From Desulfocurvus sp. (GTDB taxonomy: Bacteria; Desulfobacterota; Desulfovibrionia; Desulfovibrionales; Desulfovibrionaceae), in NCBI GenBank assembly GCA_020692325.1, contig JAIMKR010000005.1, positions 137,050-201,049 of the forward strand: a DNA stretch of 64,000 nt. The letters are read 5' to 3'. The notes under the pieces were generated by a model that ran no database searches, was not told the DNA's origin, and saw only the letters and a list, made by a program, of their open reading frames with translations. Positions within the stretch are counted from its first letter, which is position 1. The number at the start of each line of letters is the position of its first letter. Of the stretch, positions 1-57,270 are shown piece after piece. Position numbers and translations under genes: made by a program.

Positions 1-319
1 GCTCGACCCAATGGGCGTGAAGGGCGGCGCCAAGGACCTCTACGGCTACTGCGTCGATGACCCGGTCAACCGGCTGGACGTGTGGGGGCTGATGGGGGCG
101 GTATGGGAGTTGCCCACAACCGTACTGACAAAAGTTCCAAAGCTCGTGCGTGATAAACTCGGTCTTGATCCGATGCCACCAGAACGGGTTATTAAAGAGA
201 TAGCAGACAAAGAAATCGCCACCCCTTCAAGCAACTCCACCGGGACTCAGCCTACGGAAGAACAATGGAAGGGGCTAAAGAAAGATGTGGATGAGAACGG
301 TGTGCCTTCAGAATATTAG
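1..319 (+). CDS. Rhs protein, C-terminal end (3' partial) with variable tip
   Basis: The reading frame is open from base 2, so this is the end of a gene that begins left of the window. It contains the hallmark end of the Rhs core (LDPMGVKGGAKDLYG, then YCVDDPVNRLDVWGL), after which a variable tip of about 75 residues starts. In Rhs proteins the core forms a shell and the tip is the released toxin. This tip (Trp-Glu-Leu-Pro start, Lys-rich middle, ending Pro-Ser-Glu-Tyr) matches no toxin family I recognise and is short. Because it is the only tip joined to an upstream frame, it is probably the expressed one, and the copies downstream are silent cassettes. Confidence 0.8.
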   Translation, partial: LDPMGVKGGAKDLYGYCVDDPVNRLDVWGLMGAVWELPTTVLTKVPKLVRDKLGLDPMPPERVIKEIADKEIATPSSNSTGTQPTEEQWKGLKKDVDENGVPSEY

Positions 320-590: not shown

Positions 591-1082
591 GTGTCCATGG
601 GCGCGAAGGGCGGCGCCAAGGACCTCTACGGCTACTGCGTCGATGACCCGGTCAACCGGCTGGACGTGTGGGGGCTGGCGGAGGACTGGTGGGACGGGGT
701 CCAGAAGATCGGCGAGGGGCTGAACCAGCTTTGGGACAAAGCCCCCGAAGGGATAACCCAGGCGGTGTCCAAAGGCGCCCGGGGGACGGATGAAGCCGTG
801 CGCAAAGCGGTCGAGGCCTATGAAACCAACGCAGACTTGCGGAAATACACCGCGATCGCTCTCGGCGCTGGCGCTCTTCCTGTCGCGGCGGCTGGCGGAG
901 TTGAGGCGGCCCCGGCGGCCGCAGCCACTGTGGCGCGCAACCCGGAAAATGTCGAGAAGGCCTATGATTTTCTCACAGGCGCTTTTGTGCCTGGGCCGCC
1001 TGCAATGACTTGGGGCGGTGTGCGAGGCGGCGGTGTTTCTGCTGGCCTCGACTACATAAAAGACCTGACGAGGAATAAATAA
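591..1082 (+). CDS. Orphan Rhs C-terminal tip, copy 2
   Basis: The frame opens with the Rhs core end (MGAKGGAKDLYG, then YCVDDPVNRLDVWGL) with no upstream Rhs body: before base 595 the homology to the core stops. The tip starts AEDWWDGVQKIGEGLNQLW and continues with an Ala/Pro-rich segment and a C-terminus ending YIKDLTRNK. It may be a displaced toxin module that can recombine into the full Rhs gene through the shared core. A GTG at 591 or ATG at 597 could start translation, but no good ribosome site is present, so it is probably silent. The first two thirds of the tip are almost identical to the tip at 2128-2600. The toxin activity is unknown. Confidence 0.65.
   Translation: MSMGAKGGAKDLYGYCVDDPVNRLDVWGLAEDWWDGVQKIGEGLNQLWDKAPEGITQAVSKGARGTDEAVRKAVEAYETNADLRKYTAIALGAGALPVAAAGGVEAAPAAAATVARNPENVEKAYDFLTGAFVPGPPAMTWGGVRGGGVSAGLDYIKDLTRNK
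595..895 (+). repeat. Long direct repeat, copy 1 (Rhs core end plus tip N-terminus)
   Basis: About 300 bases here are nearly identical to 2128-2430. They cover the Rhs core end and the first two thirds of the tip. The two sequences diverge soon after the shared segment GALP(V/I)AAAGG, so the tips differ only at their C-terminal ends. Confidence 0.85.
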
Positions 1083-1285
1083 TGAAGCGAGTGACGGTAT
1101 CGGATATTATACTGGGCGCAATCTTTGCTTTCGTCGGATGGTCTGGCGCTGATCGCGGTGTGATACGTTATTGGGGGGTTGCGTCCCCATATCCTAGGCA
1201 ATTCGGCTGGGCGCTCATCGCGCTAGGTATCGGCATTCCCATTGCTGCGTACATCATGCGATCCCGACAGGATAGGAACAAGTAA
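1082..1285 (+). CDS. Small membrane protein, putative immunity partner of orphan tip 2
   Basis: A 67-residue protein begins MKRVTVSDIILGAIFAFVGW; its ATG overlaps the TAA of the preceding tip by one base, so the two are translationally coupled. Two hydrophobic helices (about residues 8-22 and 40-58) frame a short loop, and the end is basic (RSRQDRNK). The N-terminus resembles that of the protein at 2597-2803, which follows a nearly identical tip, so the two are likely homologous immunity proteins that have diverged together with the tip C-termini. No family is recognised. Confidence 0.6.
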   Translation: MKRVTVSDIILGAIFAFVGWSGADRGVIRYWGVASPYPRQFGWALIALGIGIPIAAYIMRSRQDRNK

Positions 1286-1334: not shown

Positions 1335-1748
1335 GGCTACTGCGTCGATGACCCGGTCAACCGGCTGGACGTGTGGGGGCTGCGGACTGATGTGCTTTTC
1401 GATTTCGGAGGCGAAGGTCGCAGCCCTCTAGATGGTCCCAAGTATGGCAATTACTGCGGGAAGAATTGGACTGGTGGCTGGAATCCCAAAGAACATGGGA
1501 ACAAACCCGGGCCGCTACCTTCTACCGACAGTCTTGACGAACAGTGCAGGGCCCATGATTATTGTTGGAGCGATTGCGATGATTCCTCAAATATTGAACA
1601 GTGCAAAGGACGATGCGATCAAGTCCTTGTCGAACGACTTAAAGCGTTGGATGAGGACTCTGCCCAGTGGGAACGTCAGCCACCTCCGGGGCAGGAGGAT
1701 CAAGCAGAGGCCATGCGCAAGGGAGCAATCTGGTGGTTCAACCGGTAA
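1335..1748 (+). CDS. Orphan Rhs tip carrying a phospholipase A2-like domain
   Basis: The Rhs core homology starts abruptly at about 1335 (GYCVDDPVNRLDVWGL) and leads into a tip of about 120 residues. The tip has the two signatures of the Ca2+-dependent phospholipase A2 fold: a calcium-loop-like YGNYCG…GG beginning at 1443, and the catalytic helix DEQCRAHDYCW with the His codon at 1554-1556 and Asp at 1557-1559. Further cysteines (SDC, EQCKGRC) fit disulfides. The expected activity is hydrolysis of membrane phospholipids at the sn-2 position, which would kill a target cell. No own start or ribosome site is evident; upstream the frame is open to 1242 but is not Rhs-like. Likely a silent cassette. 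Confidence 0.7.
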   Translation, partial: GYCVDDPVNRLDVWGLRTDVLFDFGGEGRSPLDGPKYGNYCGKNWTGGWNPKEHGNKPGPLPSTDSLDEQCRAHDYCWSDCDDSSNIEQCKGRCDQVLVERLKALDEDSAQWERQPPPGQEDQAEAMRKGAIWWFNR

Positions 1749-1822
1749 TCCATCACCTTGTCGGTGGGAATAGGTTAAGCCAGCTATGCGGTGGGGCCGC
1801 CTTTCTGGCGGCCCTCCTCCCT

Positions 1823-2047
1823 ATGTCTCTGCCATATTACTTTCTCGGCTTCGACATGACAGGAATTGCCGGGAACTTGGCGGCGAGGCTTCCCCTCTTG
1901 GCATGTATAATCTGTGCATTCGCATTTCATAAAGGCCCCAAGCAAAAACCGTGGTGGGCGCTCCTCGCCATTCCGCTCGCTTTTTTGAAGGCTCTTGGTT
2001 TCTGCCTCGCATATCTTGCGTGGAGCTGTAACGGTTTCGCTCCATAA
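1823..2047 (+). CDS. Membrane protein, putative immunity to the PLA2 tip
   Basis: The frame after the PLA2 tip encodes at least 74 residues from the ATG at 1823 (MSLPYYFLGFDMTGIAGNLA). The same frame is open further upstream through another hydrophobic stretch (GGAAFLAALLP), so the true start may be an alternative codon nearer the tip's stop at 1748. Two more hydrophobic helices are visible (around AARLPLLACIICAFAF and WWALLAIPLAFLKALG). No family is recognised. A membrane protein is a sensible partner for a lipid-degrading toxin, but that is inference from position. Confidence 0.5.
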   Translation: MSLPYYFLGFDMTGIAGNLAARLPLLACIICAFAFHKGPKQKPWWALLAIPLAFLKALGFCLAYLAWSCNGFAP

Positions 2048-2060
2048 TGCCTGCCTTTAG

Positions 2061-2600
2061 TGTCTCCACGGTAACTTCGTCTGGCGCGATTACGACGCCG
2101 ACACGGGGCGCTTCACCGCGCTGGACCCCATGGGTGCGAAGGGCGGCGCCAAGGACCTCTACGGCTACTGCGTCGATGCCCCGGTCAACCGGCTGGACGT
2201 GTGGGGGCTGGCGGAGGACTGGTGGGACGGGGTCCAGAAGATCGGCGAGGGGCTGAACCAGCTTTGGGACAAAGCCCCCGAAGGGATAACCCAGGCGGTG
2301 TCCAAAGGCGCCCGGGGGACGGATGAAGCCGTGCGCAAAGCGGTCGAGGCCTATGAAACCAACGCAGACTTGCGGAAATACACCGCGATCGCTCTCGGCG
2401 CTGGCGCTCTTCCTATCGCCGCTGCGGGCGGAGCTGAAGCGACTCCGGCCGCAGCGGCCGCTGCGGCGAAAAATCCAGACAAGATCGCGAATGCTTTGGA
2501 TTTTGTGTCCGGCGTTTTCGATCCTGGTCCCCCGCCCATGACAGGAGCGGGAGTAACAGGATATATAACAAACAAGACTTATGAGCGGTTTAACAAATGA
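2061..2600 (+). CDS. Orphan Rhs C-terminal tip, copy 4
   Basis: This orphan carries the longest stretch of core: from 2064 the frame reads LHGNFVWRDYDADTGRFTAL and then the usual DPMGAKGG…DVWGL, with one Asp-to-Ala change (VDAPVN). An in-frame TAG at 2058-2060 cuts it from anything upstream. The tip begins AEDWWDGVQKIGEG as in the tip at 591 and stays nearly identical for about 70 residues. It then diverges into an Ala-rich stretch and ends TGYITNKTYERFNK. The DWRDYDxDTGRF-type motif is the classical end of Rhs/YD-repeat cores. Toxin activity is unknown. Confidence 0.65.
   Translation, partial: CLHGNFVWRDYDADTGRFTALDPMGAKGGAKDLYGYCVDAPVNRLDVWGLAEDWWDGVQKIGEGLNQLWDKAPEGITQAVSKGARGTDEAVRKAVEAYETNADLRKYTAIALGAGALPIAAAGGAEATPAAAAAAAKNPDKIANALDFVSGVFDPGPPPMTGAGVTGYITNKTYERFNK
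2128..2430 (+). repeat. Long direct repeat, copy 2
   Basis: Second copy of the roughly 300-base block at 595-895. A recombination between the two would delete or duplicate the intervening PLA2 tip and its partner. Confidence 0.85.
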
Positions 2601-2803
2601 GAGTGACATTATCGGAAATTTATCTAGGTCAACTGTTTGTTGGCATAGGAGCGCTAGAGATCGGCGCAGGTGGAGGCTCCTGGCACGGCTATCCCATGCC
2701 ATTGTGGACATCGTACCTCCTTCTCGCAACAGGTATGGCAATACCATTGCTTGCCTGGTACTTGCGCAGACCATCGCAGAATCCAGAGAGCAACAAGCAT
2801 TGA
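2597..2803 (+). CDS. Small membrane protein, putative immunity partner of orphan tip 4
   Basis: A 68-residue protein starts MRVTLSEIYLGQLFVGIGA; its ATG overlaps the TGA of the preceding tip (ATGA). Two hydrophobic helices (about residues 8-22 and 36-54) and a polar tail give the same layout as the protein at 1082-1285, whose first residues (MKRVTVSDIILG) also align. The pair therefore looks like two alleles of one immunity family. No known family is recognised. Confidence 0.6.
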   Translation: MRVTLSEIYLGQLFVGIGALEIGAGGGSWHGYPMPLWTSYLLLATGMAIPLLAWYLRRPSQNPESNKH

Positions 2804-2878
2804 CTCAGCAAGGTGCGGACCACTTGTGATCTCGCTGCCGCCTTGCTTTCTCTACAGCACGCATCGCTCTCGACGACG

Positions 2879-2980
2879 AAGGGCGGCGCCAAGGACCTCT
2901 ACGGCTACTGCGTCGATGACCCGGTCAACCGGCTGGACGTGTGGGGGCTGGAGAGAAAAAACGGGGCGGGGAGCGCGTAA
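2879..2980 (+). pseudogene. Rhs core remnant with truncated tip
   Basis: The core end repeats once more (KGGAKDLYG, then YCVDDPVNRLDVWGL) and is followed by only nine codons (ERKNGAGSA) before a TAA. It is the last copy of the array and encodes no toxin. The stop lies inside a strong hairpin. It may be a scar where a tip was deleted. Confidence 0.75.
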
Positions 2981-55839: not shown

Positions 55840-57270
55840 ATGGCCGACACCATCACCTTCGAGAGCATCCCGTCCTCCATCAGGAAGCCGGGCAAGTACA
55901 TCGAATTCAACACCAAGCTGGCGGTGCGCACTCTGCCCGACAATGGACAGCGCTGCCTGCTCATCGGCCAGCGTCTGACGTCCGGCGCCGTGGCGGCCAA
56001 CACGGCCACACAGGTGTTCAGCGACGCGGAGGCCGAGGTCTACTTCGGCGCGGGCAGCATGTTGCACCGCATGGTGCGCGCGGCCATCAACGCCTACGCC
56101 TACATGGACATCACCTGCGTCGCCCTGGATGACGCCACGGCGGGTATCGCCGCCGTGGGCAAGCTGGACATCACCGGTCCGGCCTCGGGCTCCGGTGTGG
56201 TCACCCTGCGCATCGGCACAGACCTTGTGCAGGTGGCCGTGGCGTCCGGCGACACCGCCACCGGAATCGCGACCGCCCTGGCCGCGCAGGCCGCGCAACA
56301 GACGGACCTGCCCGTGGCCGTCACCGCCCCGGAGGGACAGACCGGCTCGCTCACCATCACCGCCAAGCACAAGGGCGCGCAGGGCAACAGCATCCGCCTC
56401 GCCGCCGCCAGCACCGCAGCCGGCGTCTCCGGCGCGGTCACAGCCATGACCGGCGGCCAGGTGGACCCGGACATCACCAGCCTGCTGGCCCTGGTGGCGG
56501 ACGCCGGGCACAACCTGCTCATCACCCCGTACAACGACCAGGTGAGCCTGGCGACGTTGCGTACGCACCTGGACTACGTGAGCGGGGCCATGGAGCAGCG
56601 CGGGGCCTGCGGCGTGTACGCGCTGGTGGGCACCCTGGCCCAGGCCACCACGCTGGCCGGCGCGGTCAACAGCGGGCGCATCACCGGCGCGGCCATCCGT
56701 GGCGTGTACCGCCTGCCCTGGGAAATCGCCTCCGGCTATGGCGCTGTCATCGCGTCCGAGGAAGACCCCGCCCGGCCGCTCAACGGTCTGGCGATCGCCG
56801 GCGTGGACGTGCCGGCCGTGGGCGACCGTTGGCTGCGCACGGAGCAGGAGGTGTTGCTCAAAAACGGCGTCACCCCACTGGAGGCCGCCGCCGACGGCAC
56901 GTCCGTGACCATCGTGCGGGCCATTTCGACCTACACCAAGGACACGCAGGGCGTGCAGGACGTGAGCCTGCTGGACCTCACCACCATCCGCACGCTGGAC
57001 TACGTGCGCAAGGCGGTGCGCACGCGCTGGGCGCTGCGCTTCCCGCGCTCCAAGCTCTCCACCCGCACGCCGAACGCGGTGCGCAGCGAGACGCTCGACG
57101 TGCTGCTCAAAATTGAGGAGCTGGAAATCATCGAAAACGTGCTGGCCAACAAGGACAAGCTCATCGTCCAATTCGACGGCCAGGACCCGAACCGGCTGAA
57201 CGTGCGCATCCCCGTCGACGTGGTCAACGGCCTGCACGTCATCGCCGGCGTCATCGACCTGTACCTGTAA
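55840..57270 (+). CDS. Contractile tail sheath protein (Mu gpL-like)
   Basis: A 476-residue sheath protein. The start ITFESIPSSIRKPGKYIEFN and RTLPDNGQRCLLIGQRL, the middle GVYRLPWEIASGYGAVIAS and the end (TIRTLDYVRKAVRTRWALRF…, LNVRIPVDVVNGLHVIAGVI) follow the Mu gpL family. Presence of a sheath means a contractile (myovirus or tailocin) tail. Full length; no disruption. Confidence 0.95.
   Translation: MADTITFESIPSSIRKPGKYIEFNTKLAVRTLPDNGQRCLLIGQRLTSGAVAANTATQVFSDAEAEVYFGAGSMLHRMVRAAINAYAYMDITCVALDDATAGIAAVGKLDITGPASGSGVVTLRIGTDLVQVAVASGDTATGIATALAAQAAQQTDLPVAVTAPEGQTGSLTITAKHKGAQGNSIRLAAASTAAGVSGAVTAMTGGQVDPDITSLLALVADAGHNLLITPYNDQVSLATLRTHLDYVSGAMEQRGACGVYALVGTLAQATTLAGAVNSGRITGAAIRGVYRLPWEIASGYGAVIASEEDPARPLNGLAIAGVDVPAVGDRWLRTEQEVLLKNGVTPLEAAADGTSVTIVRAISTYTKDTQGVQDVSLLDLTTIRTLDYVRKAVRTRWALRFPRSKLSTRTPNAVRSETLDVLLKIEELEIIENVLANKDKLIVQFDGQDPNRLNVRIPVDVVNGLHVIAGVIDLYL

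What the first reader, a model, noticed from the sequence alone, without database searches (positions are those of the whole stretch)
1335..1748. Phospholipase A2-type warhead on an Rhs tip
The tip has YGNYCG…GG and DEQCRAHDYCW, the calcium loop and His-Asp catalytic helix of the PLA2 fold. PLA2 is rare among described Rhs toxins. The following gene is a membrane protein, unlike the soluble immunity proteins common for lipases.
Basis: partly seen in the sequence, partly recalled or inferred. Interest (0 to 1): 0.65.

Follow-up and report, generated by a model that had tools for sequence, protein, structure and literature searches.

The report
PLA2 toxin tip with membrane immunity
A spare toxin tip stored behind an Rhs gene in a deltaproteobacterium is a small relative of the secreted phospholipases A2 of plants and animals, and it travels with a small membrane-protein gene that probably protects the owner; the idea of such toxins is known, but this subfamily and its membrane partner appear undescribed.

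Summary
Window 1383-1748 encodes a 121-aa domain with YGNYCGxxxxGG and DxxCxxHDxC, the two signature motifs of plant secreted PLA2. H58-D59 are invariant in 31 aligned members; D79 (the Asp99 position) is D in 27 and N in 4. Three cysteine pairs, two at the sPLA2 C29-C45 and C51-C98 positions, appear and vanish strictly together (0 discordant rows). Family profiles hit almost only sPLA2 among PDB sequences (60/60 listed for the Rhs set); a reversed decoy hits none. AlphaFold models rank rice PLA2 first, weakly (Z 6.8-7.2).

The tip is not attached to rhs here. It is one of four displaced tips behind a short rhs gene, joined by an identical 48-nt core; in related genomes the same tip is fused to rhs. 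The next gene (1733-2047) starts inside the toxin gene and encodes a 104-aa, three-helix membrane protein. Its family accompanies nearly every tip and recurs with Mu-F-linked versions: the likely immunity protein.

The genome shows no T6SS sheath, PAAR or PF05954 match, so delivery is unknown. PLA2 on Rhs is already described (Tox-PLA2 2012; Nte1 2021). New here: the subfamily, its coupled cysteines and the membrane immunity family.

The parts
1..319 (+). 3' end of the upstream short rhs gene (core end plus its attached tip 1)
   Evidence: open frame 2-319; continues upstream as a 458-codon open frame in L013
377..532 (+). 51-aa membrane ORF behind tip 1, candidate immunity of tip 1
   Evidence: weak LapA_dom hit E 0.0012, below cut-off
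591..1082 (+). displaced tip 2 (unrelated to PLA2)
   Evidence: shares a 300-nt, 98% identical block with tip 4
1082..1285 (+). 67-aa membrane ORF, candidate immunity of tip 2
1335..1382 (+). 48-nt Rhs core-end repeat, identical to the copy in the upstream rhs gene; likely recombination site
1383..1748 (+). PLA2-type toxin tip, 121 aa plus stop
1443..1478 (+). calcium-loop motif YGNYCGKNWTGG (residues 21-32), same pattern as plant sPLA2 YGKYCGxxxxGC
   Evidence: G26 invariant in 31 rows; plant motif in PMC6635587
1545..1565 (+). active-site helix CRAHDYC (C55, H58, D59, C61); His codon 1554-1556
   Evidence: H58 and D59 invariant in 31 rows
1614..1619 (+). C78-D79, the C98-D99 position of sPLA2 on the second long helix
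   Evidence: C78 covaries perfectly with C61; D79 is D in 27 and N in 4 of 31 rows
1719..1725 (+). Shine-Dalgarno-like AAGGGAG, 7 nt before the immunity start, inside the toxin gene
   Evidence: sequence
1733..2047 (+). candidate immunity gene, GTG start, 104 aa, three hydrophobic segments, ends ...WSCNGFAP
   Evidence: homologous ORF beside the PLA2 tips of relatives; N-in/C-out by charge
2130..2600 (+). displaced tip 4 (unrelated to PLA2)
2597..2803 (+). 68-aa membrane ORF, candidate immunity of tip 4
2860..2980 (+). truncated displaced tip 5 (core repeat and a stub)

Best explanation
The tip is a calcium-dependent sPLA2-fold toxin. His58, helped by Asp79, would activate water to cut phospholipids, with Asp59 and the Y21-G32 loop holding the calcium. 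It probably acts on the periplasmic side of a rival's inner membrane, where calcium is available and disulfides can form. In this genome it is a displaced, probably silent, reserve tip: recombination through the identical 48-nt core would move it onto the upstream rhs gene. The overlapping gene makes a three-helix inner-membrane immunity protein that can be translated without the toxin and would protect the owner from siblings or relatives carrying the tip in active form. Shown here: homology, coupled cysteines, genetic linkage of the pair, displaced-tip layout, fused form in relatives. Inferred: catalysis, site of action, neutralisation, silence of the tip, delivery.
For: PLA2: H58/D59 31/31, G26 31/31. 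Cys pairs C25/C55 (16 both, 14 neither), C61/C78 (13 both, 18 neither), C65/C74 (9 both, 14 neither), with no discordant rows; one relative instead has Cys at 54 and 85, the C44/C105 spacing. PDB profile hits are sPLA2, decoy none. Related proteins reach PF08398 at E 1.1e-4 and PF00068 at 1.6e-4. Models: two long antiparallel helices, pLDDT 80-95; best Foldseek hits rice PLA2 and then pancreatic PLA2. Immunity: overlapping or adjoining membrane ORF downstream of 17 of the 18 PLA2 tips with E below 1e-9 in 348 genomes of the class, found independently by its own profile; in the 18th (G095) a weaker homologue lies just upstream. Toxin and partner identities correlate, r 0.85, 0 of 5000 permutations. 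Same partner family beside Mu-F-linked PLA2, sometimes in tandem copies. Displaced tip: 5 core repeats, fused versions in L041, L024, L029. Constraint: window vs L042 differences by codon position 32/26/72. Nte1's PLA2 domain was toxic only when sent to the periplasm (PMC8263058).
Against: This sequence alone passes no Pfam cut-off. Model confidence is moderate (pLDDT 72) and much of the first 45 residues, calcium loop included, is poorly modelled; no structural hit has E below 0.001 and Z stays under 8. No activity data. The 0.85 correlation could partly reflect shared species history. No T6SS component was found, so a delivery route is missing. Some Mu-F relatives have a different partner, a PD40 lipoprotein-like protein.
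Confidence: 0.82

Rival explanations
1. The tip has the PLA2 fold but is not a phospholipase; it is a catalytically dead membrane-binding or pore-forming toxin, as some venom PLA2 homologues are, which would also fit a membrane-embedded immunity protein.
For: Immunity is an integral membrane protein, as is usual for pore formers; D79 is N in four family members.
Against: H58-D59 invariant in all 31 rows, which a dead scaffold would not need; the window copy keeps the full H58/D59/D79 set; plant enzymes carry N, S or H at the Asp99 position (PMC6635587).
Confidence: 0.1
2. The tip is a dead remnant with no present role; the array is decaying and only the immunity gene is kept.
For: No attached rhs core and no convincing start codon; a decayed copy exists in a relative (L021).
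Against: Open frame intact, catalytic and cysteine residues intact, third-position excess of changes versus relatives; intact 48-nt core for re-use.
Confidence: 0.15
3. The neighbouring membrane protein is not an immunity protein but an accessory factor (export or folding).
For: No functional test; Mu-F relatives sometimes carry another partner instead.
Against: Small downstream gene overlapping the toxin, tandem paralogues next to some toxins, co-divergence with the toxin, own ribosome-binding site in the window copy: the usual marks of immunity genes.
Confidence: 0.12
4. The motifs are a chance resemblance in an unrelated helical domain.
For: Weak single-sequence Pfam score; moderate structural Z.
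Against: Coupled cysteine pairs at sPLA2 positions, profile hits to sPLA2 with a clean decoy, rice PLA2 at the top of both fold searches.
Confidence: 0.02

Closest known systems
Plant secreted PLA2, group XI (rice structures 2wg7, 2wg8, 2wg9; PMC6635587)
   Same: Calcium-loop pattern YGxYCGxxxxG, active-site pattern DxxCxxHDxC, best structural match.
   Different: Six cysteines instead of twelve, longer stretch between Cys25 and His58, about 11-21% identity in the structural alignments, and it is a bacterial toxin tip with a linked partner gene.
Tox-PLA2 of polymorphic toxins (Zhang et al. 2012, PMC3482391)
   Same: PLA2 fold used as the C-terminal toxin of Rhs and other polymorphic toxins.
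   Different: That family is defined on the Streptomyces type (PDB 1kp4) with CxxHxxxYxN and no immunity protein listed; the window has CxxHDxCWxD and a linked membrane protein.
Nte1/Nti1 of Neisseria cinerea (PMC8263058)
   Same: Rhs protein with C-terminal PLA2-like domain (cd00618); toxic in the periplasm, neutralised by the adjacent gene.
   Different: PAAR and T6SS associated; the window genome has neither. No plasmid match to the window domain by tblastn; whether that plasmid is in the collection was not checked.
Group XIII PLA2 of parvovirus VP1u (Pfam PF08398; PMC3626588)
   Same: HDxxY and a calcium-loop motif; 11 of 17 Rhs relatives match this Pfam model at E up to 10, best 0.00045.
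   Different: A capsid domain; the window domain has paired cysteines and scores only E 0.22, below the cut-off.
Displaced C-terminal tips of rhs loci (Jackson et al. 2009, PMC2935791)
   Same: Dissociated tips, each with an identical piece of core, lined up behind an intact rhs gene.
   Different: Here in a genome without detectable T6SS and with short rhs genes.

Membership tests
Secreted PLA2 superfamily | His-Asp dyad on a long helix (H48-D49) | tested here: met
   H58-D59 invariant in 31 rows, on predicted helix 50-67
Secreted PLA2 superfamily | Glycine-rich calcium loop before the active-site helix | tested here: met
   Motif YGNYCGxxxxGG, G26 invariant; tied to the active-site helix by C25/C55 covariation. 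Loop geometry in the model is low confidence
Secreted PLA2 superfamily | Asp99-type residue on the second antiparallel helix | tested here: met
   D79 in the window; 27 D and 4 N in the family; helix 71-88
Secreted PLA2 superfamily | C29-C45 and C51-C98 disulfide positions | tested here: met
   C25/C55 and C61/C78 present or absent together in every row; bonding itself not shown
Secreted PLA2 superfamily | PLA2 fold by structure comparison | tested here: inconclusive
   Rice PLA2 top, Z 6.8-7.2 over 82-86 residues, Foldseek E 0.11 at best
Secreted PLA2 superfamily | Calcium-dependent sn-2 hydrolysis | not testable with these tools
   needs an enzyme assay
Pfam PF00068 / PF09056 / PF08398 | score above the curated cut-off | tested here: not met
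   window: PF08398 12.3 bits against 23.9, no PF00068 or PF09056 hit; relatives reach 22.8 bits (cut-off 23.9) and 22.6 bits (cut-off 32.1), still below
Tox-PLA2 (2012) | DxC[ST] and CxxHxxxYxN motifs | tested here: not met
   window has DEQCRAHDYCWSD: CxxH present, Y replaced by W and N by D (motif)
Rhs polymorphic toxin tip | variable tip directly after the conserved Rhs core end | tested here: met
   48-nt core repeat at 1335-1382; same kind of tip fused to Rhs core in L041, L024, L029, L051
Rhs polymorphic toxin tip | adjacent cognate immunity gene | tested here: inconclusive
   genetic linkage in relatives; protection not testable here
T6SS-delivered Rhs effector | T6SS sheath, PAAR and VgrG in the genome | tested here: not met
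   no PF05943, PF05488 or PF05954 match in a genome of 100% estimated completeness

The most novel reading that the evidence does not exclude
An undescribed sPLA2 subfamily forms a mobile toxin/immunity cassette shared by Rhs tips, phage Mu-F-type head proteins and stand-alone phage genes, and it is neutralised by a small three-helix membrane protein, an intramembrane way of blocking a secreted PLA2 for which I know no precedent; in this lineage it is delivered by a route other than T6SS.
Probability: 0.4. Interest if true: 0.68.

Novelty: new variant of a known kind. Interest (0 to 1): 0.5.

Why it matters
It gives a clean set of bacterial and phage PLA2 domains in which cysteines are gained and lost as pairs, linking the disulfide-rich sPLA2 of plants and animals with cysteine-free versions. 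It also names a small membrane-protein family as the probable antidote, making it directly testable how a membrane-embedded protein can stop an interfacial lipase.

Tried and rejected
Single-sequence searches of PDB, plasmids and phages gave no PLA2 or no match. NCBIfam gave nothing useful; PHROGs gave only phrog_11353, function unknown. The viral hit L043 is taken as a chance match: the 26-codon match is followed by sequence without the HD motif. A T6SS reading was tested and dropped. The only contractile sheath gene found lies 55 kb away in the window and gives no reason to link it to Rhs. A second model with more sequences did not raise confidence (72.0 to 72.1). Pfam and NCBIfam have no family for the immunity protein. 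I considered that the glycine-rich stretch just before the active-site helix (around G43) might be the calcium loop instead of 21-32, as HMMER aligns it there with venom enzymes; the C25/C55 covariation and the plant motif favour 21-32.

Full report
Location and layout. The window is base 137050 onward of contig 3 of a 3.05-Mb genome; the closest titled relatives are a deltaproteobacterial and a proteobacterial MAG. The first 319 bases finish a short rhs gene whose open frame begins about 1 kb upstream (part of that stretch reads N). Behind it lie four more core ends, carrying the same DNA, at 587, 1292, 2120 and 2860. The one before the PLA2 tip keeps 48 identical bases, 1335-1382. Each tip except the last stub is followed by a small hydrophobic ORF. 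This is the layout of displaced Rhs tips described for enterobacteria (PMC2935791). In related genomes the PLA2 tip is joined in frame to the Rhs core (L041, L024, L029), so the window copy is best read as a reserve form of a tip that is attached elsewhere.

Is it PLA2? The single sequence is a weak case: PF08398 at E 0.22 and nothing for PF00068 or PF09056. The family is a strong one. A search of 348 genomes of the class found 18 clear copies, the phylum search added more, and two phage contigs carry stand-alone forms. In 31 aligned sequences only G26, H58 and D59 are invariant. Cysteines come as pairs: 25/55, 61/78 and 65/74 are both present or both absent in every scorable row, and one relative has 54/85 instead. 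From general knowledge of sPLA2, C29-C45, C51-C98 and C44-C105 are the disulfides at the positions of 25/55, 61/78 and 54/85. Profiles of the family match sPLA2 in PDB: 60 of 60 listed for A1, 58 of 60 for A4, 17 of 18 for A5, E 0.0014 at best, whereas a profile of reversed sequences of the family matches none. Mu-F-linked relatives reach PF00068 at 1.6e-4 and PF08398 at 1.1e-4. Two AlphaFold models show long antiparallel helices 50-67 and 71-88 carrying H58-D59 and D79; rice PLA2 is the best match in both, with pancreatic enzymes next in the second Foldseek list. The structural scores are modest and the calcium loop is poorly modelled, so the fold is supported rather than proved. Plant sPLA2 are defined by YGKYCGxxxxGC and DACCxxHDxC and may carry Asn, Ser or His at the Asp99 position (PMC6635587); the window has YGNYCGKNWTGG and DEQCRAHDYC, and four relatives have Asn at position 79.

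The partner. An ORF of about 92-107 aa with two to three hydrophobic segments follows the toxin, mostly overlapping its 3' end, and ends in W..GF(AP). In the window it starts at GTG 1733, seven bases after AAGGGAG, in a different frame from the toxin. A profile of this ORF, searched on its own in 348 genomes, lands next to 17 of the 18 PLA2 tips with E below 1e-9 and rarely elsewhere: two fragments in G300, one in G213 and two weak hits. In the remaining case (G095) a weaker homologue sits just upstream. Toxin and partner identity matrices correlate (r 0.85), though common ancestry contributes. The same partner family occurs beside Mu-F-linked PLA2 genes, up to five copies in one locus. Positive charges are in the N-terminus and second loop, so the conserved C-terminus should face the periplasm. 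Neither Pfam nor NCBIfam has a family for it.

How it would work. Inference: a calcium enzyme with disulfides should act outside the cytoplasm, as shown for Nte1, whose PLA2 domain harms E. coli only from the periplasm (PMC8263058). A membrane immunity protein with its conserved end on the periplasmic side is suited to block the enzyme at the membrane surface. A well documented lipase antidote, TilA, is a lipoprotein (PMC10730906); some Mu-F relatives of this toxin have a lipoprotein-like PD40 partner instead. Delivery is open: no T6SS sheath, PAAR or PF05954 match, and the rhs gene has no evident N-terminal export domain.

Known versus new. PLA2 as an Rhs toxin is known (PMC3482391, PMC8263058). 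The displaced-tip array is known (PMC2935791). Not found in the literature searched (six searches of the open library): this subfamily, its paired cysteine loss, its spread across Rhs, Mu-F and phage genes, and its membrane partner. The absence of a description in an open-access library is weak evidence of novelty.

Noticed in passing
window 591-1082 and 2130-2600: Two displaced tips share a 300-nt block at 98% identity and then diverge towards the 3' end, each with its own small membrane ORF; they look like two versions of another membrane-active toxin.
   Followed up: partly
window 56464-56931: A contractile phage-tail sheath gene (PF04984), the only one found in the genome; a prophage or tail-like element in the window.
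   Followed up: no
L052, L055, L062, L063: PLA2 domain of the same family fused behind a Phage_Mu_F-like domain, i.e. Mu-F-type phage-borne toxins; the partner is either the three-helix protein (in L055 in several tandem copies) or a PD40 beta-propeller lipoprotein-like protein.
   Followed up: partly
L044 1289-1651, L045 4473-4838: Stand-alone PLA2 relatives in phage contigs among structural genes.
   Followed up: partly
L068-L081: Viral contigs of about 2 kb hold short ORFs with (H/W)GxWCGPxWT and CxxHD, a minimal PLA2-like module; only the matching stretch was read.
   Followed up: no
G000 contigs C1, C3, C27: Four rhs loci with unusually short rhs genes and displaced tips in a genome without detectable T6SS; the export route is unexplained.
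   Followed up: partly
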